60,000 nt of DNA from Bolinopsis microptera (taxonomy: Eukaryota > Ctenophora > Tentaculata > Lobata > Bolinopsidae): positions 20,802,765-20,862,764 of the forward strand of contig NC_087074.1 in the NCBI RefSeq assembly GCF_026151205.1, given 5' to 3'. The notes beneath the pieces are model-generated. The model ran no database searches. It was not told the DNA's origin and saw only the letters and a list, made by a program, of their open reading frames with translations. Below are positions 5,391 to 39,002 of this stretch, one piece after another. The position numbers and the translations under genes are program-made. The number at the start of each line of letters is the position of its first letter. Within the stretch, counting starts at the first letter, position 1.

Positions 5391-5433
<43 letters not shown>

Positions 5434-5515
5434 CAACCTCATTTTACCTCATGAGGCCAGCCAAAAAAGGCAAAATTGGGATGAGGTAAAATGAGGTAAA
5501 ATGAGGTAAATAAAT
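5391..5515. repeat. Left terminal unit of capped element family 1
   Basis: G-run, arm of ACCTCATTTT repeats, central block with GGCCAGCC and AAAAAAGGC, then the inverse arm (ATGAGGTAAA repeats). The unit can fold into a hairpin. It is matched in the same orientation at 9876-9962, where the cap is a C-run on the other side. Confidence 0.85.
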
Positions 5516-5999
5516 CTAGTTTTCTAAGCCTTTTTTAGAGACAAAAAAGGTTTATTCGAAGTCATTATACTATAATTCGAGGCTGTGCATGGTCTCCCAT
5601 GATATTTAATGGTTTATTAGGGGTGATGTGGTCCCTGGGAAGGGGCATTCCCAGTTTAACCTACTTACTCTCCAAACTTGGGGTAAATACAACTTCGCAT
5701 TATAATTATTGTTTATGAAAAGAAAATTGAACATTTCAATTTCCATGATCCATTAGGAAATTGTTAATAGCACTTGCTAAGTTTTGTAAAGGAATTAGCA
5801 ATAACTTTAGTGTCACTTTGGCAGTTGCCAATTTATGGGGATATTTCCGCATTGCATGACATGGACCATTTAAATAATATCTTAGTTTGATATTGCGATT
5901 ATCGAGTCACTCTGAAACAAATTGTGTCTAACTAGACCAAATTTAAACAACAGTTGTGCATGGAACTGGATTGGATATCTACATGAATTTAGTCGAAAT

Positions 6000-6406
6000 C
6001 AGGAGGTGACCGGGATTGGCAATTTTGAGCTATCCCGGTCCCGGTCAAATGCTGATTTATGATCCGGTCCCGGTCCCGGTTAATTCAGGATTCTTGGTCC
6101 CGGTCCCAGTCCCGGTCAATCACTCAAATTTGCCGGGATTTTGACCGGGATCTTTTACATAATTTCATTCACTGTGATTTTAAGTTTTTCCTTTCATTCA
6201 TTGTGAATTTCATCTTTAAACATCCTCTGAGCCAAATAAAACAATGTTTAAAATTGCTAAACAAGTTTGAGTAATAAATTATGATCAGCAATCGACCAGA
6301 ATTCCCGGTACCGGGATTGGCAATTTTGAGCCATCCCGGTCCCGGTCAAGTCACATTTGTATCCCGGTCCCGGTCAGGCCTGAAATCATGTCCCGGTCAC
6401 CTCCTG
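6000..6406. mobile_element. hAT-like MITE, 407 bp, with 8-bp target duplication
   Basis: The perfect 16-bp terminal inverted repeat is CAGGAGGTGACCGGGA at 6000-6015 and TCCCGGTCACCTCCTG at 6391-6406. The element is flanked by an exact direct repeat GTCGAAAT at 5992-5999 and 6407-6414. An 8-bp duplication and termini starting CAG...G are hallmarks of hAT elements. The subterminal parts are rich in CCCGGTCCCGGT motifs in both orientations, typical of transposase-binding repeats. There is no transposase, so it is non-autonomous. It sits inside the larger capped element and is therefore younger than it. Confidence 0.88.
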
Positions 6407-7034
6407 GTCGAAATTGCATCTAGTGAAAGGTTTCATAATAAATTACTCATATAAACTCATACTTGATACAATTCTAAGTTCTTATCATGTACATGTTCAA
6501 TGTTCATGATTCGCTGTAGAATAAAGGGCGGTTCACAAAACCACTTTTCGTTCAAATAATTAGATATCACCTCTAATTAGTTGCTCTATAGGATCAGGAA
6601 CAACCAAACAATATTTTGTGTCTACGGTTTCGTATAATACTGACTTGGGCCACGCCCATATTTTTCACCAATTTTTAACAGGTAAAATTATCTAAATCGT
6701 CAATTTAGTCACGGAGGAGTTTGGAAGGAGTTATAAATGTGTGCTCCTCTACTATAAACAGTAGGAAATGGTTAACTTTAGTCGAGGTTTCAGGTCTCTA
6801 CAATGTCGGGAAGTTCCTGCAGGAATTTGCGCATTGCGCTGAAGCGCAAGATTCACTGCGCCAAAAGCGAAGGTCGTAGAGACATGAGACCTTGACTAAA
6901 GTTAACCATTTCATACCATTGGTATCAGAGTATGCCACTTTCAGAGTCCTGAACACACTCCTACAGCTCTTAATCGTCAATTATATAAATTTTACCTGTT
7001 AAAATGTATCATCTTTAACTGATACCAATTTAGT

Positions 7035-8592
7035 CCACCCACCTCTGAATATCGGAACAGAACCGTTTACGTTGGATGAGTACAGGAAAGCAAAGTCCAG
7101 CATAAAGGAAGGGAAAGCATGGGGTGACGACAACATAGCCCCAGAAGTCTTAAAACGATGCGACCTTGATCAAATTGTCTTAGACTTCTGTAACAATGCT
7201 CTATTGAAAGGTGAGAAACCAGACCAATGGTCAACTGCCAACATCATACCAATTCCAAAGAAGGGCGACCTTAGCGAACCAATGAACTATCGGGGAATAA
7301 GCTTGTCATCCCTAGTTGCCAAGTCTCTAAACAAGATGGTTCTAAACCGGTTGAAGCCAGAAATCGAGACAATTCTGCGTAGAAACCAGAATGGATTCAG
7401 ACCAGGAAGGTCAACAACTCAACAGATATTGGTACTGAGACGTCTTATAGAGGGTGTCAAGAGTCGGAAACTGCCAGCTGTTCTGACATTTATAGACTTT
7501 AAGAAGGCTTTCGACAGTGTACATCGTGGGAAAATGCTAAAGATTCTAGAAGCTTACGGCATTCCAGTCAAAATCGTGCAGCTTATACGGCTCATGTACG
7601 AGAAGACAATGGCCAAAGTCCTAACTCCAGACGGAGAAACTGAATTGTTCGAGATACTTGCAGGTGTGTTACAGGGTGATACCTTAGCACCTTACCTCTT
7701 TGCAATAGTCATCGACTACTGTATGAGGCAAGCCATAGGCGATGATGCGGAGCGACTTGGACTCACCCTCGAACGTAGAAAAAGCAGAAGAGTGGGGCCC
7801 AAGATCATCACCGATGTGGACTTTGCAGATGATATAGCACTTATATCTGAGGACATGGACAAGGCTAACGAGTTCCTGCTCAGAGTAGAATCGGCGGCAG
7901 CAAGCGTGGGACTACACATAAACGAAGGCAAGACCAAGGTCATGACACTGAATATGGAGGATCGATCTAGCGACCTACAAAGTCGATCCGGGGAAGCCAT
8001 AGAAAATGTAGATGATTTCATCTACTTAGGCTCCTGGATTGAGAGCACAGATAGGGAGATAAGGGTTAGAAAGGGAAAAGCGTGGGGTGCCCTACATAGA
8101 CTGAAGGATATCTGGAAATCCAAACTCTCAAAGAGCCTAAAGATTAGATTGTTCATAGCGGCTTGTGAATCAGTACTGCTCTACGGATCAGAAACCTGGA
8201 CACTGACAAAGGCTCAAGAGAAAAGTTTGGACGGGACATACACAAAGATGTTGCGTATGGTGCTGGGTATCTCATGGAAGGACAAGGTCAGCAATATAAC
8301 TTTGTATGGTAGCCTCCCAAGGCTGTCAAACAAGTTACGAAGCAGGAGATTAAAAATAGCGGGACACTGCATCCGACATCCTGAACTACTTGCCAGTGAT
8401 TTAGTCTTATGGGAACCTACGCACGGTAGAGCACAGCAAGGCCGACCAAGACAAAGCTACTTGTCTATGTTACTGAAGGAAGTTGGGACAAACTCTAAAG
8501 AGGAACTGCGAACCCTGATGCGGGACAGGGATATATGGAGGGGGTTTTCTGGCGTAGATCGGACTTAGCTCCGACATAGTAGTAGTAGTAGT
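7035..8592 (+). mobile_element. 5'-truncated LINE copy with (TAG)n tail
   Basis: The insertion is bounded by the 8-bp direct repeat AATTTAGT at 7027-7034 and 8593-8600. The right foldback arm preserves the uninterrupted site (CAATTTAGTTTAACACTG in reverse complement), so the boundaries are certain to within a base or two. The 3' end is a short TAG microsatellite (about 8576-8592), a feature of several LINE clades. The 5' part, including any endonuclease, is missing. The ORF is still open along its whole length, which suggests a recent insertion. Confidence 0.9.
7036..8568 (+). CDS. LINE reverse transcriptase, 5'-truncated but open
   Basis: The frame is open from the insertion point (PPLNIGTEPFTLDEY) to TAG at 8566-8568, about 510 codons. 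Reverse transcriptase motifs appear in order: NIIPIPKKGD and NYRGISLSS; QNGFRPGRSTTQQ; motif A TFIDFKKAFDSVHRGK; motif B region AGVLQGDTLAPYLF; motif C DVDFADDIALI with the catalytic Asp pair. The C-terminal part (YGSETWTLTK, RRLKIAGHCIRHPE, LVLWEPTHG) is a tail shared by many invertebrate LINEs. The codons before the first plausible start are included because the copy is truncated, so no native start is present. The protein would copy its RNA into the target site; alone it lacks the endonuclease. The exact clade cannot be settled by eye. Confidence 0.92.
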   Translation, partial: HPPLNIGTEPFTLDEYRKAKSSIKEGKAWGDDNIAPEVLKRCDLDQIVLDFCNNALLKGEKPDQWSTANIIPIPKKGDLSEPMNYRGISLSSLVAKSLNKMVLNRLKPEIETILRRNQNGFRPGRSTTQQILVLRRLIEGVKSRKLPAVLTFIDFKKAFDSVHRGKMLKILEAYGIPVKIVQLIRLMYEKTMAKVLTPDGETELFEILAGVLQGDTLAPYLFAIVIDYCMRQAIGDDAERLGLTLERRKSRRVGPKIITDVDFADDIALISEDMDKANEFLLRVESAAASVGLHINEGKTKVMTLNMEDRSSDLQSRSGEAIENVDDFIYLGSWIESTDREIRVRKGKAWGALHRLKDIWKSKLSKSLKIRLFIAACESVLLYGSETWTLTKAQEKSLDGTYTKMLRMVLGISWKDKVSNITLYGSLPRLSNKLRSRRLKIAGHCIRHPELLASDLVLWEPTHGRAQQGRPRQSYLSMLLKEVGTNSKEELRTLMRDRDIWRGFSGVDRT

Positions 8593-9875
8593 AATTTAGT
8601 TTAAAACACTGTTAGTATTAAAAAAGAACATATAACTTCACACCAAACTAACGCACAATATGATAATATAAAAAAGGAAGGTTTTCCTTGGATTCCGAAT
8701 TCAACTTTGATTATATCCTGGCACTGATTATCATTTCTCGATTGTTCTCCATTTTCCAATGCAGTCAGCAAGTTCCAATTTAGGTAGACTAGGTTTTCGA
8801 ATCTTCATATTATGTTCAGAAGCAGGCCAGAAGGGGTTGTTACCAGAGGAATATCTTCTTGGAACAAGGAATTAATGAGGTCTTCATTTATTTCTTCATA
8901 ACTCGTCACTGACAGTCCGGACAGGATGAGCATTGACGACATCCACTGATTACTTCATAGCTCGTCATTGATAGGATCAGTATTAAATGAGGTCGAATGA
9001 TTACTTCATAGCTCGTCACTAACTGGATCAGCATAACATGACTAACAACTAACGAGGTCCAGTGATCTCTTGCTGATACGTCAAAACAAGATAAGTAAAT
9101 AGCTATAAAATCGAAAAAAATAAGCTTAGAAATTACAGAGTACAAATGCCTTCTTCACAACTAACTCTTTGGCCTCATCTTTTTAAATCACTCATTCCCT
9201 CTGAAACAAGATAATGCTTAGGACTAGGAGGAACTTAGTTAACTTCTTGTATAATTCGGTAAGAGGAAAATTCCTTAGTAAGCTAACATTCTTTTGTAGG
9301 ATGTTACCACTTATCATATCTGTTATCCAGCATAATCCCACAACTAGACCCTCTTATTCTGGAGTCTTGACAATGACAGCAGCAATGTACACTATTTTGA
9401 TGGTCCAGGTCTCCAAGAAAACCTTTCTCTTTATATTCTCATATTGTGTGTTAGTTTGGTGCGAAGTATTATTTTCTTTTTTTAAACTAACAGTGTTAAA
9501 CTAAATTGATATCAGTAAAAGATGATATATTTTAACAGGTAAAATTCATACAATTGACGATTAAAAGATATGGGAGTGTGTTTAGGACTCTGAAAGTGGC
9601 ATACTCTTATAGCAATGGTATGAAATGGTTAACTTTAGTCAAGGTCTCATGTCTCTACGACCTTCGCTTTTGGCGCTGTGAATCTTGTGCTTCAAGCGCA
9701 ATGCGCAAATTCCTGCAGGAACTTTCCGACATTGTAGAGACCTGAGACCTCGACTAAATTTAACCATTTCCTACTGTTTATATTAGAGGAGCACACATTT
9801 AGAACTCCTTCCATACTCCTTCGTGACTAAATTGACGATTTAGAGAATTTTACCTGTTAAAAATGTTTGCCGAAA

Positions 9876-9962
9876 TTTACCTCATTTTACCTCATGAGGC
9901 CAGCCAAAAAAGGCAAAATTGGGATGAGGTAAAATGAGGTAAAATAAGGTTGACCCCCCCCC
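9876..9962. repeat. Right terminal unit of capped element family 1
   Basis: Near-identical to 5433-5510 in the same orientation, but ending with AAGGTTGA and a C-run. It begins 12 bp after the end of the foldback element. Confidence 0.85.
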
Positions 9963-10151
9963 AATATAATATGTAATAATATAATATGTAATAATATAAT
10001 ATGTAATAATATAATATGTAATTATATAATATTTAATTATATATTATGTCATTATATAATATTTAATTATATAATATGTAATTATATAATATGTAATTAT
10101 ATAATATATAATTATATAATATGTAATTATATAATATGTAATTATATAATA
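9963..10151. repeat. 15-bp AT-rich tandem array
   Basis: About 12 copies of AATATAATATGTAAT and close variants lie directly between the capped element's C-run and the partial Sushi exon of gene A. They fall in what would be the intron after that exon. Confidence 0.88.
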
Positions 10152-10159
10152 TGTTGTAC

Positions 10160-10270: not shown

Positions 10271-13200
10271 CTAGTTCCCCCAACACAAGTCACTACGCTA
10301 GCTCCACCGTTCAGCTGACCCTCTTCTGAACACACAACTAGTTCCCCAACACAAGTCACTACGCTAGCTCCGCCGTTCAGCTGATCCTCTTCTGAACACA
10401 CAACTAGTTCCCCCAACACAAGTCACTACGCTAGCTCCGCCGTTCAGCTGACCCTCTTCTGAACACACAACTAGTTCCCCCAACACAAGTCACTACGCTA
10501 GCTCCACCGTTCAGCTGACCCTCTTCTGAACACACAACTAGTTCCCCCAACACAAGTCACTACGCTAGCTCCACCGTTCAGCTGATCCTCTTCTGAACAC
10601 ACCACTAGTTCCCCCAACACAAGTCACTACACTAGCTCCGCCGTTCAGCTGATCCTCTTCTGAACACACAACTAGTTCCCCCAACACAAGTCACTACGCT
10701 AGCTCCACCGTTCAGCTGATCCTCTTCTGAACACACAACTAGTTCCCCCAACACAAGTCACTACGCTAGCTCCACCGTTCAGCTGATCCTCTTCTGAACA
10801 CACAACTAGTTCCCCCAACACAAGTCACTACGCTAGCTCCGCCGTTCAGCTGACCCTCTTCTGAACACACAACTAGTTCCCCCCAAACCCACAAGTCACT
10901 ACGCTAGCTCCACCGTTCAGCTGATCCTTTCTGAACACACAACTAGTTCCCCCAACACAAGTCACTACGCTAGCTCCGCCGTTCAGCTGATCCTCTTCTG
11001 AACACACAACTAGTTCCCCCACACAAGTCACTACGCTAGCTCCGCCGTTCAGCTGACCTCTTCTGAACACACAACTAGTTCCCCCAAACAAAGTCACTAC
11101 GCTAGCTCCACCGTTCAGCTGACCCTCTTCTGAACACACAACTAGTTCCCCCAACACAAGTCACTACGCTAGCTCCACCGTTCAGCTGATCCTCTTCTGA
11201 ACACACAACTAGTTCCCCCAACACAAGTCACTACGCTAGCTCCACCGTTCAGCTGACCTCTTCTGAACACACAACTAGTTCCCCCAACACAAGTCACTAC
11301 GCTAGCTCCGCCGTTCAGCTGACCCTCTTCTGAACACACCACTAGTTCCCCCCCAACACAAGTCACTACGCTAGCTCCACCGTTCAGCTGACCCTCTCTG
11401 AACACCAACTAGTTCCCCCAACACAAGTCACTACGCTAGCTCCACCGTTCAGCTGACCCTCTTCTGAACACACAACTAGTTCCCCCAACACAAGTCACTA
11501 CGCTAGCTCCACCGTTAAGCTGATCCCTCTTCTGAACACACACTAGTTCCCCCTACACAAGTCATTACGCTAGCCCCCCGTTCAGCTGACCCACTTCTGG
11601 TACACACCACTAGTTCCCCCCAACCAAGTCACTACGCTAGCTCCACGTACAGCTGAATCCTCTTCTGAACACACAACTAGTCCCCCAACACAAGTCACTA
11701 CGTGCTCCCCGTTTAGCTACCTCTTCGAAAAAAAACAAATAGTTCCCCCCCAAAACAAGTCACTCGCTAGCCCGGTTCGCTGACCTCTTTGAAAACCAAT
11801 ATTTCCCCCAACACAAGTCATAGCTAGCTCCCCGTTTGCTGATCCTTTCCCCCCCAACACACAAATAGTTCCCCCAAACCAATTTACTAACCCAGCTCCC
11901 CGTTCGCTGAACCCCTTCTGAAAACAAACTAGTTCCCCAACACAAATCACTACGTATCCCCCCTTCATGACCTCTTTGAACACACAACTGTTCCCCCACA
12001 ATCCTTCGTAGTCCCCGTTCGTGACCTTTCTGAACACACAATAGTTCCCCCAACAAAAGTCACTATCTCCCCGTTCAGCTGACCCCCTTTTAAACACCCA
12101 AATAGTTTCCCCAACCCCCAAAGTCCCCCTACCTGTCCCCGTTACTGATCCTTTTGAACACAAACTAGTTTCCCCCCCAAACAAGTCCCTCCTACTCCGG
12201 GCCCTTCAGCTGCCTCTTTGAACAAACCCAATGTTCCCCCAAAAAAGTCACTCGCTAGCTCCCCGTCAGCTGACCCCCCTTCGAACACAAAATTTTTCCC
12301 CCCCCCACGCCCGGCCCCCCCCCCCCCCTAGTTCCCCCAACCAAGTCACTCGAGCTCCGCGTTCAGCTGACCCTTTTGAACCACCAATAGTTCCCCCAAA
12401 ACATCCTACGCTAGCCCACGTTCAGTGACCCTTTGAACACAAACTAGTTTCCCCCCCAACCAAGTCACTCGCTAGCTCCCGTTCAGGACCCCCTTGAACA
12501 CACAAATTTTCCCCCACACAAGCACTAGAGTCCCCGTTTAGTGCCCCCCCCTTTGAACACACAATAGTTCCCCAAACAAAGTCAAGCCCTATCTCCCCGT
12601 TTGCTGACCCCCTTTTTTAACAACCCAAAAGTTCCCCCCACAAGTCATACGCTAGCCCCCGTTTTAGTAATTTTAACCACAAAACAAAACCCCAAAACCA
12701 AAACACAAACCCCCCCCCACCTTTCCCAAAAAAAAATTTTAAACAATTTTACTATAAAAGGGGGGGTTTGACCTTTAAAAAACAACTTTTTAAACAGTTT
12801 CACCAAAACACCACCGTTTTACAATCCCTTTTAAAACACAAAAGCCCCAAACCAACACCCCAACCCCCTTTAACCTTTAACACCCAAACCCCCCCCCCCC
12901 AACACAAACAATCACAGCCCCCTTCAGGGGGGGGGGGATCCCCTTCTACCAAATAGTTCCCCCCCCCAAAAGCAACCACCCCCCCCACCCCTCTTTGAAA
13001 CCAAACCCCCCCCAATTCCCCACCCCCGGGGCCTTTTTACCCCCCCCCCAAACAACACACGACCCCCCCCCCCCCCCCCAAAAAAACCTTTTTTTTCCCC
13101 TTTTCCCCAACCCAAAATCCCCCTTTTTTAAACCCGGAAAAAACCATCCCCCCCCCCCTTTTTTTTTTTTCTGAAACAAAAAACATTTTCCCCCAAAAAA

Positions 13201-16200
13201 ACCCAGGTCACTTTTCCGAGCTCCCCCCTTCAGGATTTGAACCCCCCTTTTTCTGAAAAACCCAAAAAACTAGTTCCCCCCAACAAAAAAGTCCCTAGCT
13301 AGCTCCCCCTTTTCCGCTGTCCTCCGAACACAAAAATAGTTCCCCCCCAAAACCAAGTCACTAAAATCCCCGTTTTTCTTCCCTTTTTAACACCAAAAAT
13401 TTCCCCCAAAACCTTTCGTAGCTCCCGTTCAGTGATCCTTTTTGGAAACACACAACTAGTTTTCCCCCAAAAAACCCCAAAAACCCACCCAGCTCCCCCC
13501 TTTTTGCTGCCCCCTTCTGAAAAAACAAAAATAGTTCCCCCCCAAAAACAAATTTACGTAGCTAGCCCTCCCGCCTTCAGGGTGACCTTTTTTTTAAAAC
13601 CCCCAACCTTTTTCCCCCCCCACACATCCCCTACCCGCTAGCTCCCCCCCCCGGTTTAGCTGTCCTCTTTGAACACACAATATTCCCCCCAAAATTCACA
13701 AGCCCCCCTACGCTAAACTCCCCCGTTCAGTACCCTCTTCTGGAAACACAAAATAGTTCCCCCAACCCCCAAAGTCATACGCAGCTCCCCCGTTCAGTGA
13801 TTTTTGAACACACAACTAGTTTTTCCCCCAAAAACAAGGGGCCTTTTCGCTCTCCGCCTTCAGTGGGGGGAACCTCTTCTGAACACCCCAACTAGTTCCC
13901 CCCAAAAAAACCCCGTAATACGCTAGGGGTCCCCCTTTTTGTGACCTCTTCGAAAAAACAAACAGTTCCCCCCCCAAACAAGTCACTACGCTTGCCCCCC
14001 AAAACCGTTTTAGCGACCCCCCGACCCAATAGTTTCCCAAACAACAAGGGCCACTCGAGCTCCACCGTTAAAGCTGACCCCCTTTGAAAACACCAAAATG
14101 TTCCCCCCCCCCCAAAACAATTTCCCCCAAAGCTAGCTCCACCCGTTTTAACCTCCAAACCCAACTTTTTCCCCCAAACCGCTCCTATCCCCGTTTTTTT
14201 GACCCTTTTGAACACACAAAATGTTCCCCCCCCAAACAAAATCACTACGCTGTCCCCGTTTTAGTGATCCCCTTCTGAAAAACCCAATTTTGTTTTCCCC
14301 CCCCAAAACAAGTTTCCCCCTACGCTAGCCCCCCCGTTCAGGGCGACCCTTTCTGAACAACAATGTCCCCCCAAAACAAGTTTCCCTGCTACCCCGTTCA
14401 AGCTGACCCCCTTTGAACCACAACTAGTTCCCCCCCCAAAACCCAAATCACTACCAGCTCCCCCGTTCAGGATCCTCTTCTGAAAAACACAAATATTTTT
14501 CCCCCCCCCAAAAATCACTAAAAGCTAGCTCCCCCGTTTTGGTTTCCCTTTTGAACACAACTGTTCCCCCAACACAATCAAATACCCGTTGCTCCCCCGT
14601 TCCCCCGGTCTCTTATAACACACAAAAATAGTTTTTCCCCCCCAAAACCACAAGGTCACTTACGCTTCCCCAAAGTTTCAGTGACCCTCTTTTCGAAACA
14701 CAACTAGTTCCCCCCCAAAACGTCATGACTTTCCCCCCCTTAGTGACCCCTTTGAAACCCCCTAAAACTAGTTCCCCCCCCCCAAAAAGTCCCCCCTACG
14801 CTAGTTCCCCCGTTCGTGAAACCCCTTTTCTCCCAAACCAAACTAAAATTCCCCCAAAACACAAGTCACTAACGCTAGCTCCGCCGGTTTTTTCAGTGAC
14901 CTCTTCTGAACCCCCCCAAAAAAAAAACAGCCCCCCCCAAAACCCCAAAAACCCCTTTGTTGCCCCGCCCGTCCAAATTGCCCTCCCTTCTAAAAACCCC
15001 CCAACTAGTTTTTCCCCAACCCAAACATTCCCCGTCCCCGTTTTTCCCCAAACCTCTTTCTGAAAACAAAAACCGTTTTTTCCCCCCCAACACCAAAATT
15101 AAACCTACCCCCACCCCTTTTCCTGCCCCCCGAACACAACGTCACCCAAAAAAACCCCTTTTTCCCTTGCCCCCCCCCGTTCCCGCTGACCCTCCCCTTT
15201 TGAAACCCAAAAATAGTTCCCCAACCAAGTCACTAGCCCGCTCCCCGTTTTACTGACCTCTTCTGAAACCCCAAACTAGTTTCCCCCCCCAAAAACCAAG
15301 TCCACTCGCTAGCTCCCCCCGTTTTGGGGGACCCTTTCGGAAAACCCCCCCCAAAAAAAGTTTCCCCCCAAAAACAAAAGGGCCCCTCGGGTAGGGGTCC
15401 CCGTTCAGCCGCCTTTCTGAAAAAAAAAAAGTTTCCCCCAAAACAAAGTTCACTCGCTTTTGCTCCGCCGTTAGATCACCCGAAACACCCCCTGTTTCCC
15501 CCCCAAAACCAAAAAGTCACTTCCCCACCCACCCTTTTGCTGAAAAACCCCTTCTGAACAAAACAACAGTTCCCCCAACACAAGTCCCGTAGCTCCCCCT
15601 TCACGACCTCTTTTGGGGAAAAACAAACTATTCCCCCCCCCACAAAGTTTACCCGCTGCTCCCCGTTCACTACCCCTCTTTAAAACCCCAAAAAGTCCCC
15701 CCAAATTTCCCCCCTTCGCCCTTTGCTCCCCCCCCTTCAAGCGACCCCTTTTCTGAATCCCCCTTAAACTGTTCCCCCCCTTTTTCCCCTCACTTCCACT
15801 TTCCCGCCGAAAAAGAAACCCCCCCTTTTATCCCCCTATTCCCCCCAAAAAAGTCACTCGCTAGTCCCCGGGTTCCGCGAACCCCCCGAAAAAAACCCCC
15901 AAAATTTCCCCCCAAACAAATCCCCTCCCCCTTAGGCTCCCCCCAGGGGTTAGCTTTACCCTTTTTCTAAAACCACAAAAACCCCCCCGTTCCCCCCCCC
16001 CCCAAAAAAAAGGGCACTACCCGGGTTTGCCCCCCCCTTGTTTTGCTGACCCCTTTTCTTTTTTGAAACACAACAAAACTTCCCCCCCCAAAAACCCAAG
16101 TCACTTTTTAGCCCCCCGTTAGTGACCCCCTTAACCCCAAAACAAACTTAGTTCCCCAAAACCCCAAATTCACCTTTTCGCTAAGCTCCCCCCCTTTTCA

Positions 16201-19200
16201 GCCCCGATCCCTTCTGAAACACAAAAAACTAGTTTCCCCCCAACAAAGGGGAAATACGCTAAGCCCCCCCTTTTTGGATATCCTCTTTTTTAAAACCCAA
16301 CAACTGTTTTCCCCCAACACCAAGTCAAAATCGCCCCGCTTTAACCGTTAGTGACCTCTTTAACCCCCAACCCGTTCCCCCAAAACACAAGTCACTACGG
16401 GGGTTCCCCCCTTTTTAAATTCCCTCCTTCTGGGAAAACACACAAAAAGTTTCCCCCAACCCAAGTCACCCTTTTCGCTAAATCCCCCGTTTTGCGGGGG
16501 GCCCCCGAAAAACAAAAATAGTTTCCCCACCAAGTCCTACGCTATCCCCCGTTTTTAGGGAACCCCCTTTCCCGAACAAACCACTTGGGGGTTTCCCCCC
16601 CAACCCAAAAAGTCCCAAAAAGGGGTTTGGGGCTCCCCGTTCAAGCTGACCTTTTTGAAACCCCAAACTTTTCCCCAAAACCCAAATCAAAGCTGCTCCA
16701 CGTTTCAGTGACCCCTTTTTTGAACAACCACAACTAGTTTCCCCCCCAAATACAAGTCCAAAACGGCTAGCTTCCCCCGTTAGCTACCTCTTTGAACAAA
16801 AAAACTAGCCCCCCCCCAACAAAATCCTAAAACCTAGCTCCCCGTTTCGCTACCTCCTGATCACCAAAAAAAGCCCCCAACAACAAGCACACCCCTTAGC
16901 CCACGTTCAAACGGACCTTTTTAAAAAAATAGTTTTTCCCCCCCACAAAATCTACGCTAGCCCCCCCCTTACTGACCCCCTTCTGAACACACAAAAAATG
17001 TTTTTCCCCCAAAAACAAGTTTTACTTACCCAGCTTCCACCTTCAGCACCTCTTCTGAAAACCCCAACAATTTCCCCCAACACAAAAATACTACGCAACT
17101 CCCCGTTCGCTGTTTTTCTTTTAACACACAAAAAATTTTTCCCCCAAACCCCAAGCATACGCTAGCTTTCACCCTTTTACTATCCCTTTGAAAACAACTA
17201 CCCCCCCCCAAAATCCCCCCCCGTTCCCCGCCGTTTTTTAGGACCCTTTCCCCCTTTTGAACACACAATTTTCCCCCCAACCCAAACAAGCAACTGCCCG
17301 GCTTCCCCCGTTCAGCCTGACCCTCTTTAAACCCATATTTTCCCCCCCAACCAACACTTTCCAAGTCCCCCCCCGTTTTTGCTGTTTCCTCTTTTTTGAA
17401 AAAAACAAAAACTGTTCCCCCCCCAAAAACCCCCAAAGGGGGGCATTACGTTTTGACACCCGCCCCTTAAAAAACCCCGACCCCCCTTCTGAAAAACAAA
17501 AATAGTTCCCCAAACCAATCCTTTCCTTTCTCCCGTTCACGGACCCCCATTCTTTTAAAAACCACCTATGTTCCCCCCAACACGGTCCTACGCTAGCTCC
17601 CCCGTTCAGGGGAACCTCTTTTTTTAAACAAAAATTAACCAACAAAGTCACTGATCCCTCCCCGGGGTTAGTGAACCTTTTTCTAACCCAAAACCAAACT
17701 ATTCCCCCCAACAAAAAAGTCATCGCTAGCTCCCCCCGTTAGCTGTTTTTTTTTCTTTTTTGAACACACAAAATAGTTTTTTCCCCCCACCCCCAAAAAG
17801 TCATCGCTAAAAAGGGTCCCCCCCCGTTTAAACTGAACCCTTCCCGAACACCAAATTTTCCCCCAACACAAGTTCACTCGCTTGCTCCCCCTTCAGTGCC
17901 TTTTTTTCTGAACACAACTAGTTCCCCAACCCCCAAGTCCCCTTTTTCTCCCCCCCCGTTCAGTGACCCTTTCGAAACACCAACTAGTTCCCCCAAAACC
18001 CAATATGCCAGCTCCCCCGTTCGTGACCCCCTTTTAACACCAAATAGTTTCCCCCCCAAAAAAAAGTCACTACGCCCCTAACATTTCCCGCCTTCAAAAT
18101 TTCCCCTTTTGAACACACAAAAAGCCCCCCAACACAATATACGGCTTTTAGCTCCACCCTTTAGCTGACCCCCTTTTTAACACCCAAATAGTTCCCCCAA
18201 CACAATCACTACGTAGCTCCCCCCCGTTCAGCGATCCCTTCTGAAACACAAAATATTTCCCCCCAAAAAAACCCCACAAATCACTTGCTCCCCTTTCAGC
18301 GAATCCCTTCTTCTGAACACACCAAAAACCCCAGTTTCCCCCCCCAACCACCCAAGGGCCAATGCTCCGCTTGCCCCCTTCAGTGACCCCCTTTTAAACA
18401 AACAGTTCCCCCAAACAAACCCAAATTCACTCCTAGCTCCCCCGTTCAGCTGACCCCCTTTTAAAAAACACAACTAGTTTTCCCCCCCCAAACAAGTCAC
18501 ACCTAGCTCCCCGCCTTTCGTGACCCCCTTCGAAAAAACCCCAATATTCCCCCCCCACAAGGAATTCCTAAACCCCCCCTTCAAAGGTCCTTTTGAACAC
18601 CAACTTGTTCCCCCCCCAAACCCCCCAATCCTAGCCCCGCCGTTAGTTTATTCTTCGACAACACAATAGTTTTCCCCCCAACACAAAACACTACGCTAGC
18701 TCCCCGTTCAGCGAACCTTTTTTTCCCAAAAAAAACTTTTCCCCCCCAAAAACAAGTCACCCTGTCCGCCCTTCACTTTCCTTTTTTAAAAACCCCAATT
18801 TCCCCCCCCACAAGCCTACGCTAGCTCCCCCCCTTTTAGTGACCTTTTTTGAAACCCCAAAAGTTCCCCCCCCCCCAAAGGGTTACTACGCTTTTTTGGG
18901 CCCGGCCGTTCCATCTTTTGAAAACACCAACATTTTCCCCCAAAAACAAGTCACTGGGGTTTTCCCCCCGTTTTCAAGCTGATCTCCCTTTTGAAACCCA
19001 ACCAAGGTTCCCCCCCAACACAAACCTCTAGCTGGGGCCCCCGTTCAGTGATCCTTTTTGAAAAACAAACTATTCCCCCCAACACAAGTCAACACCTACC
19101 CGCCCTTCAGTGATCCCCCTTCGAACCCCAACAAACAATTTTCCCCCAAAACCCAACCCCACTACGCAGCTCCGCCGCCTTTTAGCTGTCCCCTTCTAAC

Positions 19201-21851: not shown

Positions 21852-21901
<50 letters not shown>

Positions 21902-22811: not shown

Positions 22812-23546
22812 AAATCTCCAAATATTAGCATTTCCGTCGGTCATGATATTTGGATGGAAGTCATCATGTTTATTCATACATTCATTTAGACGGTATTTTG
22901 AGGTACCACTGGAAACCTCTATGTCGATCTTTCCCGCGTTTCCCTCGTTCCCGTAGAAGATGATCCTCAGGTTGCCCTGCGAGTGTGTCTGTATCTCCAG
23001 GGGAGAAGACTCTATGTTGACTTTTGTATCTTTGGTAACTGTTATCCAGCCTGTGGGAATTTAAGTAAGCGGATAGTTAGAATTTGTATTTGGGCATAGT
23101 TACAGCATAGTTACAGCATAGTTACAGCATAGTTACAACATAGTTACAGCATAATTACAGCATAGTTACAGCATAGTTACAGCATAGTTACAGCATAGTT
23201 ACAGCATAGTTACAGCATAGTTACAGCATAGTTACAGCATAGTTACAGCATAGTTACAGCATAGTGTTTAGTGACCCACACGTGCACGACGCACCTCATA
23301 AACTGAAGATTACCAAACGATAGAAATAGACAATTCTGCCAGTATTTATAAAGACAACAACTTACTCGACGAGCAAGCGTTCATTTGCGGAGCGGACGAA
23401 GACTGACACGATAAAACTAATAACAGTGAAGTAATAGTGAAGTCTGAAAACTACTAACCGCTATCAATTCCAGACCCTGAGGTGAAGCCGAATATCCAGT
23501 AGATCACTACAAAGCGCTTTATAGTCATTGTAGAGATCCTCTTCAT
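22812..23546 (-). CDS. Gene A: signal-peptide exon and first domain exon of a secreted protein
   Basis: Exon 1 (23546-23459) encodes MKRISTMTIKRFVVIYWIFG followed by a few residues, a plausible signal peptide (a second ATG is at 23528). It ends in phase 1 before GTTAGT. Exon 2 begins after CCCACAG at 23050 with GWITVTKDTKVNIES and continues through GNLRIIFYGNEGN and YRLNECMNKHDDF to NIW at 22815, where the assembly fails. Gene B has the same architecture: exon 1 ends in G, phase 1, then GWTIP..., GNAFTVWF and ECMTNSFDH. The two are paralogues. The protein is inferred to be secreted and extracellular. It lies antisense within intron 4 of SLC35F6 and probably continues to the Sushi exon at 10160-10270. 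Confidence 0.65.
23094..23268. repeat. 11-bp tandem array (GCATAGTTACA)n
   Basis: About 16 copies of an 11-bp unit with rare variants lie in intron 1 of gene A, which is also intron 4 of SLC35F6. Confidence 0.93.
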
Positions 23547-27985: not shown

Positions 27986-30900
27986 CTAATTACCTGGTTT
28001 GACTACACACTGGGGCAGGGCTCTGTACTCCCATTGACGTTTTGTCATACACTTTACCGAGCTGTCGCCTAGCAACAGAAGGTTGTCTTGACTACAGTGT
28101 AGCATCACGTGAGTGCCATGTGACACTGGTAGGGACGGTGTGGTCCTCAGGTAGTCGCTCCAACTGTCCGGTAGAGCTCCGCACTTTTCTGAGATGTTAA
28201 AGAGCGGTTAAGGTCGGGATTAAGAGCTCAAGCTTTCTAAATGAATGGCTGTATTAACTGTACTAAGACAATGTTTAGCGTATTTTTATCTTACAAATTA
28301 CATATACACACTCTTTGTGATAACTGATAAGGCACTATAATCAGATAACAACAATGGAAATGCTGTGGAGTAGCCATGCTTGCTAGAAACCTAAGAAATA
28401 TCCCATACTCACCTAGTTGGCACTGAGGCTTTACTTTGTACACGAAATCATTGTAGCCGGAGCACGTTACCACCGCATCCCCTGTCATCTCGTAACCAGG
28501 GGAACAGGACACTGTGATCACTGCTCCTGGGTCTACAGGGAAGCTTGCGGAGGATGTCACGTGGTCCCATTGTGGTGGTATCTCTGAACAAGGTGCTGTG
28601 GGGATAAAGAGTTGTCAGGGTATTCTCAGCTATCATCTGTTTACAACAAGTCAATTACTATCAGGCTGTCTCTAAGTCTCTCAGATCGGACCCTGAATTA
28701 GCTCAAGTTAAACAGCTGATTTTTACAATCTCTGGGGGGGGGGCCAACCATATTAAAGTATATTAAAGTATATCCCCGGGTCAAAATCGGAAAAAATCCT
28801 ACATTTTAATATACTTTAATATACCTACAATTAGAAGATTTATATTCTTCGTTAAGATTTACATGAAGAACTATATTTTTCACTCAGATTCGCAAGATAA
28901 GCCTGTTTTAGGACTAGTACATGAATTTCCATCCAGATTGGTCAAAAATTGGCTGAGCTATGAGCTTTAAAAAATATGCCCATATTTGGGTATACGCTTT
29001 TGCCCAAATTCGCTTTTGCCCAAATTCGATAAAATTTCAATATTTTTTAATGAGACTAACTCTATGTGAAAGATATAACTCAGTGTTTGTTGAATATAGT
29101 GGATACTAAGTAAAAAGACCTCCATGAACAAAATTGGGAAAATTGCACATAATATCTCGGTTCGGAATACTAGCCAAAATGACTTCATTAAAATTGAAAT
29201 AACTCCATCAGTTTTCAATATTTTTTCAAGAACTTTTTGGAATCGATTAAGAATTGCATTTCAAGCTTATTTTGGGTAACAATTTTTGATGTAGGCCTCC
29301 AAGGAGATAGGGATATATTAAAGTATATTAAAGTACATTAAAGTATATTAAAGTATATCCCCGGGTCAAAATCGGGAAAAATCCTACATTTTAATATACT
29401 TTAATATGGTTGGCCCCCCCCCCAATCTCTCCTGAAAGTAGAGATCTACTTACCAGATTTCCTCACGTACACTGCCCCAGTTTGTAGCCCCTACTTACCA
29501 GATTTCCTGACGTACACTGCCCCAGCTTGTAGCCCCTACTTACCAGATTTCCTTACGTACACTGCCCCAGCTTGTAGCCCCTACTTACCAGATTTCCTGA
29601 CGTACACTGCCCCAGCTTGTAGCCCCTACTTACCAGATTTCCTTACGTACACTGCCCCAGCTTGTAGCCCCTACTTACCAGATTTCCTGACGTACACTGC
29701 CCCAGCTTGTAGCCCCTACTTACCAGATTTCCTGACGTACACTGCCCCAGCTTGTAGCCCCTACTTACCAGATTTCCTCACGTACACTGCCCCAGCTTGT
29801 AGCCCATACTTACCAGATTTCCTCACGTACACTGCCCCAGCTTGTAGCCCCTACTTACCAGATTTCCTCACGTACACTGCCCCAGCTTGTAGCCCCTACT
29901 TACCAGATTTCCTGACGTACACTGCCCCAGCTTGTAGCCCCTACTTACCAGATTTCCTGACGTACACTGCCCCGGCTTGTAGCCCATACTTACCAGATTT
30001 CCTCACGTACACTGCCCCAGCTTGTAGCCCATACTTACCAGATTTCCTCACGTACACTGCCCCAGCTTGTAGCCCATACTTACCAGATTTCCTCACGTAC
30101 ACTGCCCCAGCTTGTAGCCCATACTTACCAGATTTCCTCACGTACACTGCCCCAGCTTGTAGCCCCTACTTACCAGATTTCCTTACGTACACTGCCCCAG
30201 CTTGTAGCCCCTACTTACCAGATTTCCTTACGTACACTGCCCCAGCTTGTAGCCCCTACTTACCAGATTTCCTGACGTACACTGCCCCAGCTTGTAGCCC
30301 CTACTTACCAGATTTCCTGACGTACACTGCCCCAGCTTGTAGCCCATACTTACCAGATTTCCTTACGTACACTGCCCCAGCTTGTAGCCCATACTTACCA
30401 GATTTCCTGACGTACACTGCCCCAGCTTGTAGCCCCTACTTACCAGATTTCCTGACGTACACTGCCCCAGCTTGTAGCCCATACTTACCAGATTTCCTCA
30501 CGTACACTGCCCCAGCTTGTAGCCCCTACTTACCAGATTTCCTCACGTACACTGCCCCAGCTTGTAGCCCATACTTACCAGATTTCCTCACGTACACTGC
30601 CCCAGCTTGTAGCCCAGTTATGGGACTGCCGTTTGAGTCAACTGCTACAGATGTAAACTGGGTTTGCCACACGCTGGCACACTGAGTAAACCCGTCAATG
30701 TAGCTGGAAGGATAGTTCCAGCTCAGAACCGTTACTCCATTACACTGAAGAGTCAAGAAATCCCACCCCCTCGTTACTTTCCACAACTTGTCCCCACCCG
30801 AGGTGGTGGTGAGGTAGCGGTGGTCGAAGGAGTTGGTCATGCACTCTTTCACAACATACGACCACTGAGAACATCCGTCATTATTACACTGCATGTTGAG

Positions 30901-32684: not shown

Positions 32685-32715
32685 TCAAACAATAAAAGAT
32701 AAAGTGGTAAACAAA

Positions 32716-32785
32716 ATGAGTATCACACTAGGCAGTGAGAAGTTGTTAGTTCTTTTGATAGAGGCCTCACGAGAAGAGAAACACA
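32716..32785 (+). CDS. Possible first coding exon (MSITLGSEKLLVLLIEASRE...)
   Basis: ATG at 32716, preceded by AAACAAA (favourable A at -3), opens 23 codons ending IEASREEKH in phase 1. The exon is followed by a consensus donor, ACACA then GTAAGT at 32786. I do not recognise the protein and found no partner exon. The case rests on start context, composition and donor quality, and on the parallel with gene B, where an exon end and donor were amplified. Confidence 0.3.
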
Positions 32786-35085: not shown

Positions 35086-35216
35086 TCAGGAATATTTCAT
35101 CAGGAATATTTCATCAGGAATATTTCATCAGGAATATTTCATCAGGAATATTTCATCAGGAATATTTAATCAGGAATATTTAATCAGGAATATTTCATCA
35201 GGAATATTTCATCAGA
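35086..35216. repeat. 14-bp array (ATCAGGAATATTTC)n
   Basis: About nine copies with two TTTAAT variants lie about 140 bp upstream of the FABP reading frame. Confidence 0.92.
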
Positions 35217-35353
35217 TCATCGCGATTGAATTGCATTTTAAATATTTTGACAGTCTTCTGTCCAATAACCACTTAACTTGTATTTACTATAAGTGATAAG
35301 GTTGAAAGTTGATATAGTAATTCTCCAACTGGCACTGCAGACCACTGTAGACC

Positions 35354-35767: not shown

Positions 35768-36087
35768 TGGTTACAGCTGGACGTTTGGTTTAAGTTTTAT
35801 GAACTTTGTAGTCATGACGATATTCTGCCTTTTTAGTGGACTTGGAAATCTGTTACCTATCGTCAACATCTGAGCCAAAATAGAAAGTTAGTTTTTTCTC
35901 TTATAATGTAGAGGGAGTGGCCTACAAATTATTAACTTTGACCATTTTTTGATACAAACAATTTTTTTGTTTTAATGCTCTATCTTATAGTGGTTTTGAT
36001 CTATTCCTTAGTAGTAAAGACCACTGCAACTGCCCCCTACGAAGAAGAAGAAGAGATACAAACAATTGAAATGTTGTATCTTCAGCC

Positions 36088-36412
36088 GTCTCTTAAATAA
36101 GGCTAATAAAGGGTAAAATGTAAAATAAGGCTAATAAAGGGTAAAATGTAAAATAAGACTAACGGAGGGTAAAATGTAAAATAAGGCTAATAAAGGGTAA
36201 ACTGTAAAATAAGGCTAATAAAGGGTAAAATGTAAAATAAGACTAACGGAGGGTAAAATGTAAAATAAGGCTAACGGAGGGTAAACTGTAAAATAAGGCT
36301 AATAAAGGGTAAAATGTAAATTAAGGCTAATAATTAATAAAGGGTAAAATGTAAAATAAGACTAACGGAGGGTAAAATGTAAAATAAGGCTAATAAAGGG
36401 TAAAATGTAACA
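36088..36412. repeat. 28-31-bp tandem array around AAGGCTAATAAAGGGTAAAATG
   Basis: About 11 copies of a unit with two forms (GGCTAATAAAGGG and GACTAACGGAGGG) start about 320 bp downstream of the FABP stop. The alternation suggests a higher-order pattern. AATAAA in several units could serve as a polyadenylation signal for the FABP gene. Confidence 0.9.
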
Positions 36413-36787
36413 TACAATGACAGAGTCATTTAGTTTAAATTATGGTGAATTTTACTGTTAAGTAATGTGTGTTTGTACTGAAATAGAGCAGTCAATTGTT
36501 GAGGTGTTCGGATATATGGATTAGGATGTACAGTGTAAATTATGGTATATGGTTTAGATAATAGAGTGGTTCGACTCTCCAATCTTTATATTTCCTTTTC
36601 CTTTTCCTTGTAAGGTTTAGATCCTCTCTTTTAACGGCAAGTATCTTTAAAATTTGGATCTCCCTGGCGTAGAGCCAATTCCCATCATTTTACCTAAAGC
36701 ATACTCACAATAACCGACTTATCCCAAGTGATAAATTATGTTCTGTTTATCACGTGTAGTATACACTCCTTATATGGGCATCAAGTG

Positions 36788-38800
36788 GGGGGGGGGTGTC
36801 ACGTCCGTCTATGTCCGCTTGTCTCATAGAATCCAAAAAGGACAGGACATAGGCGGACATAGGCGGACATAGACGGACATAGGCGGACATAGACGGACAT
36901 AGGCGGACATAGGCGGACATAGGCGGACATAGGCGGACATAGGCGGACATAGGCGGACATAGGCAGACATTAATGGACACCTAAATTGCTAAATAAAATG
37001 TTCAATTTTTGCTGTTATAGGGGATCATGTTTTTTGTCCGTTCGGTACCCTATATTTTCAAAACGGACAAAAAATAGAGCGGACAAAAACGGACAAAAAT
37101 GGACAAAAACGGACAAAAATGGAAATAACATTTAGCTTCCTCCTCCTACTCTTCCTCCTCCTCCCCCTGGGTCTTCCTGATCTTCCTCAGTCCTCTTCCT
37201 CCTCCCCTCCTCAGTCCTCCTCCTACTCCTCCTCCTCGTCCTCAGTCCTCCTCATCAGTCCTCAACAGTCCTCCTCCTCCCCAGTCCTCCTCCTCCTCCT
37301 GAGTCCTCCTCCTGGGTCCTCCTCCTGGGTCCTCCTCCTCCTCTTCATCCTCCTCCTCTTCCTCCTCAGTCCTCAGTCCTCCTCAGTCCTCCTCCTCATC
37401 CTTCTCCTCAGTCCTCCATCCTCCTCCTCAGTCCTCCCCCAGTCCCCCTCCTCCTCCTCCTATTAAGTCCTCCTCCTCCTCCTCCTCCTTCTCAGTCCTC
37501 CTCAGTCCTCCTCCTCCTCATCCTCCTCTTCCCTCTCAGTCATCCTCCTCAGCCATCCTCCTCAGTCCTCCTCAGTCCTCCTCCTCAGTCCAACTCCTCC
37601 TGGGTCCTCCTCCTCCTCTTCATCCTCCTCCTCTTCCTCCTCGGTCCTCAGTCCTCCTCCTCCTGGGTCCTCCTCCTCATCCTTCTCATCAGTCCTCCTC
37701 CTCCCCAGTCCTCTCCCAGTCCCCCTCCTTCTCCTCCTCCTATTCAGTCCTCCTCCTCCTCCTCCTCAGTTCTCCTCAGTCCTCCTTCTCATTTCTCCTA
37801 AGTTCTCCTCCTGAGTCCTCCTCCTGAGTCCTCCTCCTCCTCCCTCTCAGTCATCCTCCTCAGTCATCCTCCTCAGCCATCCTCCCCAGCCATCCTCCTC
37901 AGTACTCCTCAGTCCTCCTCCTCAGTCATCGTCAGTCCTCCTCCTCAGTCCTCCTCAGTCCTCCTCCTCCTCCTGGGTCCTCCTCCTCTTCCTCCTCCTG
38001 GGTCCTCCTGGGTCTTCCTGATCCTCCCCAGTCTTCTTCCTCCTCCCCTCCTCAGTCCTCCTCCTACTCTTCCTCTTCGTCCTCAGTCCTCCTCATCAGT
38101 CCTCAACAGTTCTCCTCCTCCCCAGTCCTCCTCTTCCTCCTGGGGCCTTTTCCTGGGTCCTCCTCCCCAGTCCTCCTCCTCCTGGGTCCTCCTCCTCCTG
38201 GGTCCTCCTTCTCCTCCTCAGTCCTTCTCCTCCTCCTCCTCAGTCCTCTTCCTCCTCTTCCTCCTCCCTCTCAGTCATCCTCCTCAGCCATCCTCCTCAG
38301 CCATCCTCCTCAGTCCTCCTCCTTCTCAGTCCTCCTCCTGAGTCCTCCTCCTCCTGAGTCATCCTCCTCAGTTCTCCTCCTCCTCCTCCTAGGTCCTCCT
38401 TCTGGGTCCTCCTCCTCCTCCTCCTCCTGGGTCTTCCTGATCCTTCTCCTCCCTCTCAGCCATCCTCCTCAGTCATCCTCCTCAGCCATCCTCCTCAGCC
38501 ATCCTTCTCAGCCATCCTCCTCAGTACTCTTGAGTACTCTTCAGTCCTCAAAATGTTTGTCCGCTAATGTCCACCAATGTCCGCTAATGTCCACCAATGT
38601 CCATCTAAGTCCGCCAATGTCCGTCCGGGTCCGCCAATGTCCGTCCGAGTCCGCCAATGTCCGTCCGAGTCCGCCAATGTCCGTCCGAGTCCGCCAATGT
38701 CCGTCCGTGTCCGCCAATGTCCCAAAAAACACGTCCGTTGTCTCATAGAATCCAAAAAGGACAGGACATAGGCGGACATAGACGGACATGACACCCCCCC
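36788..38800. mobile_element. Poly-G/poly-C-capped element, family 3, with 7-bp target duplication
   Basis: The left end is a 9-base G-run (36788-36796) then TGTCACGTCCGTCTATGTCC; the right end is GGACATAGACGGACATGACA then a 7-base C-run, with one mismatch in about 26 bases of inverse match. TCAAGTG flanks it at 36781-36787 and 38801-38807. A block GTCTCATAGAATCCAAAAAG GACAGGACATAGGCGG occurs in the same orientation near both ends (about 36821-36856 and 38740-38775). Arms are 10-bp repeats (GGACATAGGC) on the left and a 14-bp form (GTCCGCCAATGTCC) on the right. The interior is a 1.4-kb TCC-rich microsatellite. There is no transposase. Confidence 0.8.
37129..38530. repeat. 1.4-kb pyrimidine-rich microsatellite (TCC / CAGTCCTCC)
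   Basis: The plus strand is dominated by C and T: TCC triplets mixed with CAGTCCTCC, GGGTCCTCC and CAGCCATCC. There are long polypyrimidine tracts. It lies inside the family 3 capped element. The 115-codon Ser/Leu/Pro-rich ORF at its start is a by-product of the triplet repeat. Confidence 0.93.
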
Positions 38801-39002
38801 TCAAGTGTAGTATTGTATAAACGTAAATATTGAGAGGAGACGACAAATGTATAACTATAGACTCACGTGAAAAAATCAAATGCCGATTTTATTTATTTGT
38901 AGCTTTAATTTTTCAACTTGAAGCTGTGTTCAGTGTTTTGAGACGATGGTAAGGGTGTAAAAATAGGTCAAAACTTGTGAGATTTATAAATTTCCTTTAA
39001 TA

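What the first reader, a model, noticed from the sequence alone, without database searches (positions are those of the whole stretch)
5391..38807. Three sequence-unrelated elements share one unusual plan: G-run cap, 10-bp arm repeats, same-orientation hairpin block at both ends, C-run cap
Elements at 5391-9962, 28734-29422 and 36788-38800 share the plan but almost no sequence. The arm motifs are ACCTCATTTT, ATATTAAAGT and GGACATAGGC, all 10 bp. Each has a central block repeated in direct orientation near both ends, flanked by inverse arms. G-runs always cap the left and C-runs the right. Elements 2 and 3 have 8-bp (CAATCTCT) and 7-bp (TCAAGTG) target duplications. I know of no transposon group defined by poly-G/poly-C caps with this subterminal design. 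An 8-bp duplication would allow a hAT- or Zisupton-like transposase acting in trans. It may be an undescribed class of non-autonomous elements.
Basis: partly seen in the sequence, partly recalled or inferred. Interest (0 to 1): 0.85.

Follow-up and report, generated by a model that had tools for sequence, protein, structure and literature searches.

The report
Poly-G-capped mobile DNA elements
The three look-alike stretches are copies of three abundant families of small mobile DNA elements, belonging to a set of at least six, that share a plan of poly-G/poly-C caps, 10-base repeats and hairpin units but almost no sequence, which suggests an undescribed group of transposons whose enzyme is still to be found.

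Summary
The loci are copies of multi-copy families in a 264.7-Mb eukaryotic genome (size and karyotype fit the ctenophore Bolinopsis microptera, an inference). E1/E2 ends (G8-YCAACC) occur 428 times against 13 for the reversed pattern; G7-TGTCACG (E3) 419 against 1. All 30 E1 and 30 E3 ends sampled carry caps. Target duplications lie outside the caps and are compatible with 6 bp in E1 10/15, E2 16/19, E3 8/8 rows, not 8 and 7; nested copies give empty sites. Three more capped families turned up: E5 (one hairpin; 3 of the 4 scorable copies 6 bp), E6 (full plan, 8 bp in 10/11) and E7 (full plan, 6 bp in 7/12), E7 by a motif designed beforehand to exclude E1 and E2. Units of five families are no more alike than shuffled sequence. 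Same-orientation units can explain one-, two- and three-unit versions, as with solo LTRs. Cap length differs between copies of one insertion. Best reading: non-autonomous, foldback-like TIR transposons mobilised in trans. No transposase was found; hAT and MULE domains are common, but only part of the copies could be checked. New variant of a known kind, possibly a new group.

The parts
5385..5390 (.). E1 left target-site duplication AATATA
   Evidence: read
5391..5432 (+). E1 left G-cap (42 G)
5433..5512 (+). E1 left hairpin unit, TIR TCAACC, arms ACCTCATTTT / ATGAGGTAAA (period 10)
   Evidence: (z -6.4)
5999..6406 (.). nested insertion in E1 (approximate borders), absent from other E1 copies, about 8 bp duplicated
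7034..8593 (+). nested non-LTR retrotransposon fragment in E1 (approximate borders; RVT_1, E 8.8e-34)
9879..9953 (+). E1 right hairpin unit, same orientation as the left
   Evidence: z -5.1
9954..9962 (+). E1 right C-cap
9963..9968 (.). E1 right target-site duplication AATATA
28727..28733 (.). E2 left target-site duplication AATCTCT
28734..28743 (+). E2 left G-cap
28744..28826 (+). E2 left hairpin unit, TIR CCAACC, arm ATATTAAAGT
   Evidence: (z -4.6)
29314..29413 (+). E2 right hairpin unit, same orientation
   Evidence: (z -3.6)
29414..29423 (+). E2 right C-cap
29424..29430 (.). E2 right target-site duplication AATCTCT
36781..36786 (.). E3 left target-site duplication TCAAGT
36787..36796 (+). 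E3 left G-cap
36797..36970 (+). E3 left hairpin unit and arm array GGACATAGGC (12.6 copies), TIR TGTCACG
   Evidence: (z -7.0)
37130..38548 (+). E3 interior: TCCTCC-type minisatellite
38731..38793 (+). E3 right unit, same orientation (hairpin weak, z -1.5)
38794..38800 (+). E3 right C-cap
38801..38806 (.). E3 right target-site duplication TCAAGT

Best explanation
The three loci are copies of three non-autonomous DNA transposon families (E1, E2, E3) belonging to a set of at least six capped families in this genome. Shown on the copies read: they begin with a G-run and end with a C-run, have short terminal inverted repeats and are flanked outside the caps by a short target duplication, mostly 6 bp (8 bp in family E6). 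Inferred: a DDE/D-type transposase encoded elsewhere binds the 10-bp arm repeats, which are phased about one per DNA helical turn, uses the cap plus the following CAAC-like motif as the cleavage signal, and inserts the element through staggered cuts. Shown in part: because the hairpin unit lies in the same orientation at both ends, versions with one, two and three units occur; inferred: homologous recombination between units makes them, as solo LTRs are made. Caps are part of the element but differ in length between copies of one insertion (shown; replication slippage inferred, assembly error possible).
For: Copy number with different flanks. End patterns 428 vs 13 and 419 vs 1 control. Duplications outside the caps: compatible with 6 bp in E1 10/15, E2 16/19, E3 7/7, E5 3/4 rows, one more E3, exactly 6 bp in 7/12 E7 loci; E6 compatible with 8 bp in 10/11. 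Empty sites: E3 in E1 copy L071, the uninterrupted sequence being in E1 copy L152; E3 in E1 copies L152/L037, close to other E1 copies; E6 in E2 copy L133, uninterrupted in the window's E2. Families found afterwards: E5, E6 and, by a motif chosen beforehand, E7. 10-bp arms by TRF in E1, E2, E3, E6, E7, in E5 by reading. One-unit copies with caps and own duplications, L072 and L073; three-unit E2 L133 and three-unit E7 L176. Cap change: L184 vs L186, the same insertion on C10 and C18, G47 vs 13 and C14 vs 24; L128/L129 G16 vs 21 and L130/L131 G22 vs 15.
Against: No transposase was found in the longer E1 copies read (L069, L070, L071, L134) or the longer E2 copy L133: their extra length is nested elements or extra units. 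Not compatible with 6 bp: 5 of 15 E1 rows (one 5 bp, three without an exact match, and L074 with 8), 3 of 19 E2 (7 bp), 1 of 4 E5; 4 of 12 E7 loci show none (L176 and L177 are duplicates of each other) and one shows 7. Six of ten E5 copies could not be scored. The 6-bp and 8-bp families need two enzymes or one flexible superfamily. A family with direct units and 10-bp arms but no G-cap exists (E8), so cap and arms are separable. Excision was not observed. Of 72 hits of the predictive motif, 14 were not CCAACGCC, as many as the 14 control hits, and six of the 58 others lie in one amplified array.
Confidence: 0.8

Rival explanations
1. The families are non-autonomous members of the hAT superfamily, moved by an hAT6-like transposase (6-bp duplication) for E1, E2, E3, E5 and E7 and an ordinary hAT (8 bp) for E6.
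For: hAT is the superfamily described with 5-, 6-, 7- and 8-bp duplications (hAT5, hAT6, hAT7; passages of PMC12730594). hAT dimerisation domains are abundant here: 150 matches, 150 of 365 candidates scored. A candidate hAT element with an 8-bp duplication is present (L174 518-2974).
Against: That candidate begins CAGGGG, not with a G-run. No hAT match listed on C1 or C2 lies within 10 kb of a capped end listed (my comparison; nearest 14 kb; only the first 100 of 428 capped ends are listed). No hAT gene was found between caps.
Confidence: 0.25
2. They are Mutator-like foldback elements: long composite inverted ends with short tandem repeats, moved by a MULE transposase.
For: Most foldback elements are assigned to Mutator (passages of PMC4079207). 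Tm1 has composite TIRs with tandem ~14-bp motifs and MITE-like members (passages of PMC3169594). 88 MULE matches here.
Against: Mutator foldbacks give 8-10 bp, mostly 9 bp, against 6 bp in five of six capped families. Of four listed MULE matches within 10 kb of a listed capped end (C1:12302570, C1:19916372, C1:3879106, C2:1727035), only the first was read; it lies outside the E3 element. The other three were not examined.
Confidence: 0.2
3. The caps and repeats are assembly or library artefacts.
For: The same window holds a homopolymer-stuttered stretch (about 11.3-22.9 kb) that looks corrupt; 10 of the 24 capped pairs found by a plain scan lie in it and are spurious. Cap lengths differ between copies of one insertion.
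Against: Caps occur in 30 of 30 E1 ends found with a query that held no cap base and in 30 of 30 E3 ends found with a query that held two cap bases, with duplications outside the caps and empty sites in nested cases. Only the lengths are doubtful.
Confidence: 0.03
4. The caps are not encoded but are added at each integration, as C-tailing of the transposon 3' ends before joining.
For: Both 3' strands end in C-runs next to the duplication in the families read; G-caps vary from 6 to 48 between copies.
Against: Lower bounds typical of each family: E1 8 or more with mode 9, E3 6 or more with mode 8 (30 ends each), E5 6 in all four tabulated copies, E6 6-7 in 8 of 11. Copies of one insertion also differ, so later slippage suffices.
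Confidence: 0.07

Closest known systems
Foldback elements (Drosophila FB, Tetris, nematode Tm1, Galileo)
   Same: Ends built of short tandem repeats in inverted arms; copies without coding capacity; transposase often not found (Tetris). That Drosophila FB ends contain 10-bp repeats is recalled, not checked.
   Different: 8-10 bp duplications in Tetris and Tm1 (7 bp in Galileo is recalled), long inverted ends, and no homopolymer caps mentioned in the passages seen; here 6 bp (8 in E6), poly-G/poly-C caps, and a hairpin unit repeated in direct orientation at both ends.
hAT5/hAT6/hAT7 groups of the hAT superfamily
   Same: Duplications of 5-8 bp within one superfamily would cover both the 6-bp and the 8-bp families.
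   Different: Classified by transposase; the hAT candidate read here begins CAGGGG; no transposase links them.
IS3EU / GingerRoot
   Same: 6-bp duplication.
   Different: Termini TA..TA (TAYGG..CCRTA) or TG..CA, not G-run..C-run.
Dada
   Same: 6-7 bp duplication.
   Different: Dada has no terminal inverted repeats and inserts at fixed sites in small RNA genes; these have TIRs and varied AT-rich sites.
Solo LTRs (analogy of mechanism only)
   Same: One-unit copies that keep both outer ends and the duplication, as expected from recombination between direct repeats.
   Different: The units are not complete LTRs: their inner edges lack the cap and the TIR.

Membership tests
TIR DNA transposon (non-autonomous, MITE-like) | terminal inverted repeats | tested here: met
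   E2 39 nt at 95%, E3 36 nt at 89%; E7 29 and 31 nt; E1 by reading
TIR DNA transposon (non-autonomous, MITE-like) | target-site duplication of near-constant length, and empty sites | tested here: met
   (with exceptions listed there); empty sites
TIR DNA transposon (non-autonomous, MITE-like) | autonomous partner with a transposase sharing the ends | tested here: inconclusive
   none in the longer copies read; only part of the copies examined
hAT superfamily | hAT transposase between the ends | tested here: inconclusive
   PF05699 abundant but not found in a capped element (against the 100 ends listed)
hAT superfamily | 8-bp duplication (classical hAT) | tested here: not met
   6 bp prevails in E1, E2, E3, E5, E7; 8 bp only in E6
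Zisupton / KDZ | 8-bp duplication | tested here: not met
   E1-E3 are 6 bp; Zisupton-1_PGr (Dileera lineage of KDZ) is described with 8 bp
Mutator foldback | 8-10 bp duplication | tested here: not met
   6 bp prevails in five of six capped families
IS3EU | TA..TA termini | tested here: not met
   G-run..C-run termini; definition from passages
Dada | insertion at a fixed site in small RNA genes, no TIR | tested here: not met
   varied AT-rich duplications and clear TIRs; flanks were not searched for RNA genes
Helitron / Helentron | no target-site duplication (recalled) | tested here: not met
   duplications present

The most novel reading that the evidence does not exclude
A previously undescribed group of eukaryotic DNA transposons defined by homopolymer G/C caps followed by a CAAC-like motif, helically phased 10-bp arm repeats and hairpin units in direct orientation, in which the caps themselves act in recognition or synapsis of the two ends (for example by G-quadruplex pairing of the two G-strands), with a transposase lineage not yet linked to any known superfamily.
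Probability: 0.3. Interest if true: 0.82.

Novelty: new variant of a known kind. Interest (0 to 1): 0.62.

Why it matters
At least five families in one genome keep the same odd architecture (four of the five were compared and are unrelated in unit sequence), and a terminal motif predicted one of them. Such constraint without sequence conservation points to a mechanical requirement of transposition (helical phasing of binding sites, a homopolymer at the cut) that can be tested. The direct-unit design lets these elements shrink to solo units or grow by unit number, and the caps are variable poly-G tracts that may destabilise replication and assembly. If the genome is the ctenophore Bolinopsis, they are also candidates for regulatory material, since chromatin loops of the related Mnemiopsis are reported to be associated with transposable elements (PMC12221973, passages).

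Tried and rejected
Looked for a transposase: longer E1 copies (L069, L070, L071, L134) and a 2.05-kb E2 copy (L133) proved to be standard elements enlarged by nested elements or an extra unit. L070 carries a nested element with about 8 bp duplicated at its borders and a 228-aa transposase-like frame (my reading) without Pfam hit; rejected as partner because its ends are not caps. L091 (G-run TCAACCCCGAG) is single copy, probably chance. 20 of the 24 ends in the list that I could not pair were read and gave E1 or E2 variants, truncated ends or stuttered sequence. hAT loci: L173 shows no capped ends; L174 has candidate CAGGGG ends with 8 bp, the left one in two copies. One MULE match near an E3 lies outside it; three others within 10 kb were not read. 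L053 91-1173 is a longer unrelated inverted repeat. LTR-like reading of the direct units rejected: inner unit edges lack cap and TIR. Helitron reading rejected (duplications). Papers: the listings show no G-capped transposons; two searches returned no paper. I saw passages only of PMC10045372, PMC10232365, PMC11797021, PMC12221973, PMC4079207, PMC3169594, PMC12859917 (nothing relevant), PMC3706591 and PMC12730594, and listings of the rest.
Full report
Observation. The three loci were read directly. Each starts with a G-run and ends with a C-run, carries a unit with inverted arms in the same orientation at both ends, and has arms made of 10-bp tandem repeats (TRF; repeats; folding, where 8 of 9 stretches folded gave z from -3.6 to -7.0 and the right E3 unit gave -1.5). 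Local alignments between the units of E1, E2, E3, E5 and E6 do not exceed shuffled sequence in any of 10 pairs.

Copies. The genome holding the window has 264,652,675 bases in 232 contigs; C1 to C13 are 15.2-26.2 Mb. E2 gave 41 near-full copies at 98-100% with 40 of 1326 candidates scored, plus short matches; eight copies are 98.5-99.7% identical to one another, so the family is young. E1 gave 40 matches with 40 of 196 candidates scored, E3 42 with 40 of 971. The pattern G8-YCAACC occurs 428 times against 13 for the reversed control; G7-TGTCACG, the left end of most E3 copies and both ends of some, 419 against 1. Of the 100 places listed I could arrange 76 as facing pairs. Caps were measured on the best 30 matches. 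The E1 query held no cap base, the E3 query two. 29 of 30 E1 ends have at least 8 G directly before TCAACC; the thirtieth, L026, has a long G-run separated from it by TG. 30 of 30 E3 ends have at least 6 G.

Target duplications. Both flanks were compared base by base, allowing for bases that could belong to flank or cap (first pass). Compatible with exactly 6 bp: E1 10 of 15 rows (13 copies, one one-unit copy, one short version), E2 16 of 19 rows (18 copies and one one-unit copy; a further copy, L106, was not parsed by that script and shows 6 bp), E3 7 of 7, and an eighth. Exceptions: three E2 copies, the window's own among them, show 7 bp; among E1, one shows 5 bp, three have no exact match and the short version L074 shows 8. 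Most E1 pairs were chosen, hence with at least 8 G at both ends. Two E3 copies sit inside E1 copies: for L071 (ATTATA) the uninterrupted sequence is in E1 copy L152; for L152 with L037 (AACAAT) other E1 copies are close but not identical there.

More families on the plan. A scan of the fetched sequence for G-run/C-run pairs with equal 6-bp flanks gave 24 rows: 13 were E1, E2 or E3 copies, 10 lie in the stuttered part of the window and are spurious, and one was new. This is E5, a 113-bp single hairpin with G6 and C6 and TGATCA on both sides. Its search gave 43 matches with 40 of 42 candidates scored, mostly diverged. Of ten E5 copies seen, four had both ends fit for the table and 3 of 4 are compatible with 6 bp. 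The 2.05-kb E2 copy L133 holds a nested 1.4-kb element E6 with arms GTCATTAATG and direct units. E6 has 107 matches with 40 of 473 candidates scored, and 10 of its 11 copies examined are compatible with an 8-bp duplication, 3 of 11 with 6. I then asked for G7-YCAAC followed by letters that exclude E1 and E2. This gave 72 hits against 14 in the control, 58 of them CCAACGCC, six of these in one amplified array. Of 20 loci fetched from these, 12 have both ends; 7 of the 12 show exactly 6 bp, one shows 7, four none; L177 duplicates L176, L186 is the same insertion as L184, and L180 shares one flank with L179. This family, E7, has 10-bp arms GGGGCCTTTT and a 79-nt unit at 94% in direct orientation at both ends. 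The other 14 hits number as many as the control; twelve were read, the other two earlier (L091, L183). Some are corrupted copies of E1, E2 or E7, others may be further families, not followed up.

Unit number. In direct orientation two units can recombine and delete what lies between them. One-unit copies with both caps and own duplication exist (L072 CACAGT; L073 AAATAA), and so do three-unit copies (E2 L133; E7 L176 with 230-bp spacing). I infer homologous recombination; I did not observe it. The one-unit E1 copy L072 carries sequence variants shared with L074 and L116, so independent movement of one-unit forms is also possible, and E5 is known here only as a one-unit form.

Caps. Cap length is not constant: the same E7 insertion on C10 and on the contig C18 has G47/C14 and G13/C24, and duplicated E2 insertions differ by 5 and 7 G. 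The family-specific minimum speaks for a templated cap lengthened by slippage, though assembly error in homopolymers cannot be excluded: the window contains a badly stuttered stretch. L187 shows a flank plus G-cap segment amplified about a dozen times and L195 an inverted repeat of an E7 end around a C-run/G-run junction, which suggests that caps disturb replication or repair.

Enzyme. No capped element with a transposase was seen. hAT domains (150 matches) and MULE domains (88 matches) are common. Comparing listed positions, no hAT match on C1 or C2 lies within 10 kb of a capped end listed (nearest 14 kb). Four MULE matches lie within 10 kb of a capped end listed; the nearest, 4.6 kb from an E3 end, lies outside that element; the other three were not read. 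This covers only the first 100 listed ends of each pattern. Published passages say that hAT includes groups with 5-, 6-, 7- and 8-bp duplications (PMC12730594), that IS3EU has usually 6 bp with TA..TA ends (PMC10045372), that Dada has 6-7 bp, no TIRs and fixed targets (PMC3706591), and that foldback elements mostly belong to Mutator, with 8-10 bp in Tetris and Tm1 (PMC4079207 and PMC3169594). Of these, hAT-type mobilisation would best cover 6 and 8 bp together, but the G..C ends do not fit the CA-type end of the hAT candidate read here.

Species. C1 to C13 hold 97.5% of 264.7 Mb (my sum). Bolinopsis microptera is reported with 13 chromosome-scale scaffolds holding 97.23% of the bases (PMC10232365, passages) and 265 Mb, but 346 scaffolds against 232 contigs here (PMC11797021, passages). 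The identity is inferred from size and karyotype only.

Verdict. In kind these are non-autonomous TIR transposons with foldback-like ends; the cap, the phasing and the direct units make them a new variant. Whether they form a new group depends on the missing transposase.

Noticed in passing
window about 11300-22900: Homopolymer-stuttered sequence (long runs of C, A and T at almost every step), apparently corrupt assembly; similar text in L117, L205, L206 and L207.
   Followed up: partly
L061 988-1414: Family E8: direct-orientation units and 10-bp repeats (TTTGTCGGGG) but no G-cap, ends AAGGCATCATG..CATGATGCCTT; 101 matches with 40 of 142 candidates scored.
   Followed up: partly
L070 478-4192: Nested element inside an E1 copy, about 8 bp of E1 duplicated at its borders, with a 228-aa frame (motifs WSDGCSSQF and HGKGACD) that has no Pfam hit.
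   Followed up: partly
L187 1-640: The left flank, duplication and G-cap of an E7 insertion are amplified about a dozen times into a minisatellite.
   Followed up: no
L195 129-200: An E7 end is mirrored around a C15/G11 junction, as if a hairpin had been copied.
   Followed up: no
L204 and window 28917-28994: The E2 interior is homologous (71% over 164 columns, E 9e-22) to sequence behind a different capped end in L204, so ends and interiors may evolve separately.
   Followed up: partly
G000 C1:3879106/3888245, C4:1930223/1944193, C10:12968812/12979436: Short MULE-domain pieces in diverging orientation 9-14 kb apart recur at three places.
   Followed up: no
L174 518-2974: Candidate hAT element beginning CAGGGG with an 8-bp duplication, carrying inverted arrays of GACAATTGACCCCCC.
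   Followed up: no
window 29430-30700 and 39216-39499: Two tandem arrays, one (CTACTTACCAGATTTCC...) open over 426 codons, one with a C-run in each unit.
   Followed up: no
window 49572-57392, minus strand: A 2606-codon open frame without Pfam hit at E 0.01.
   Followed up: no
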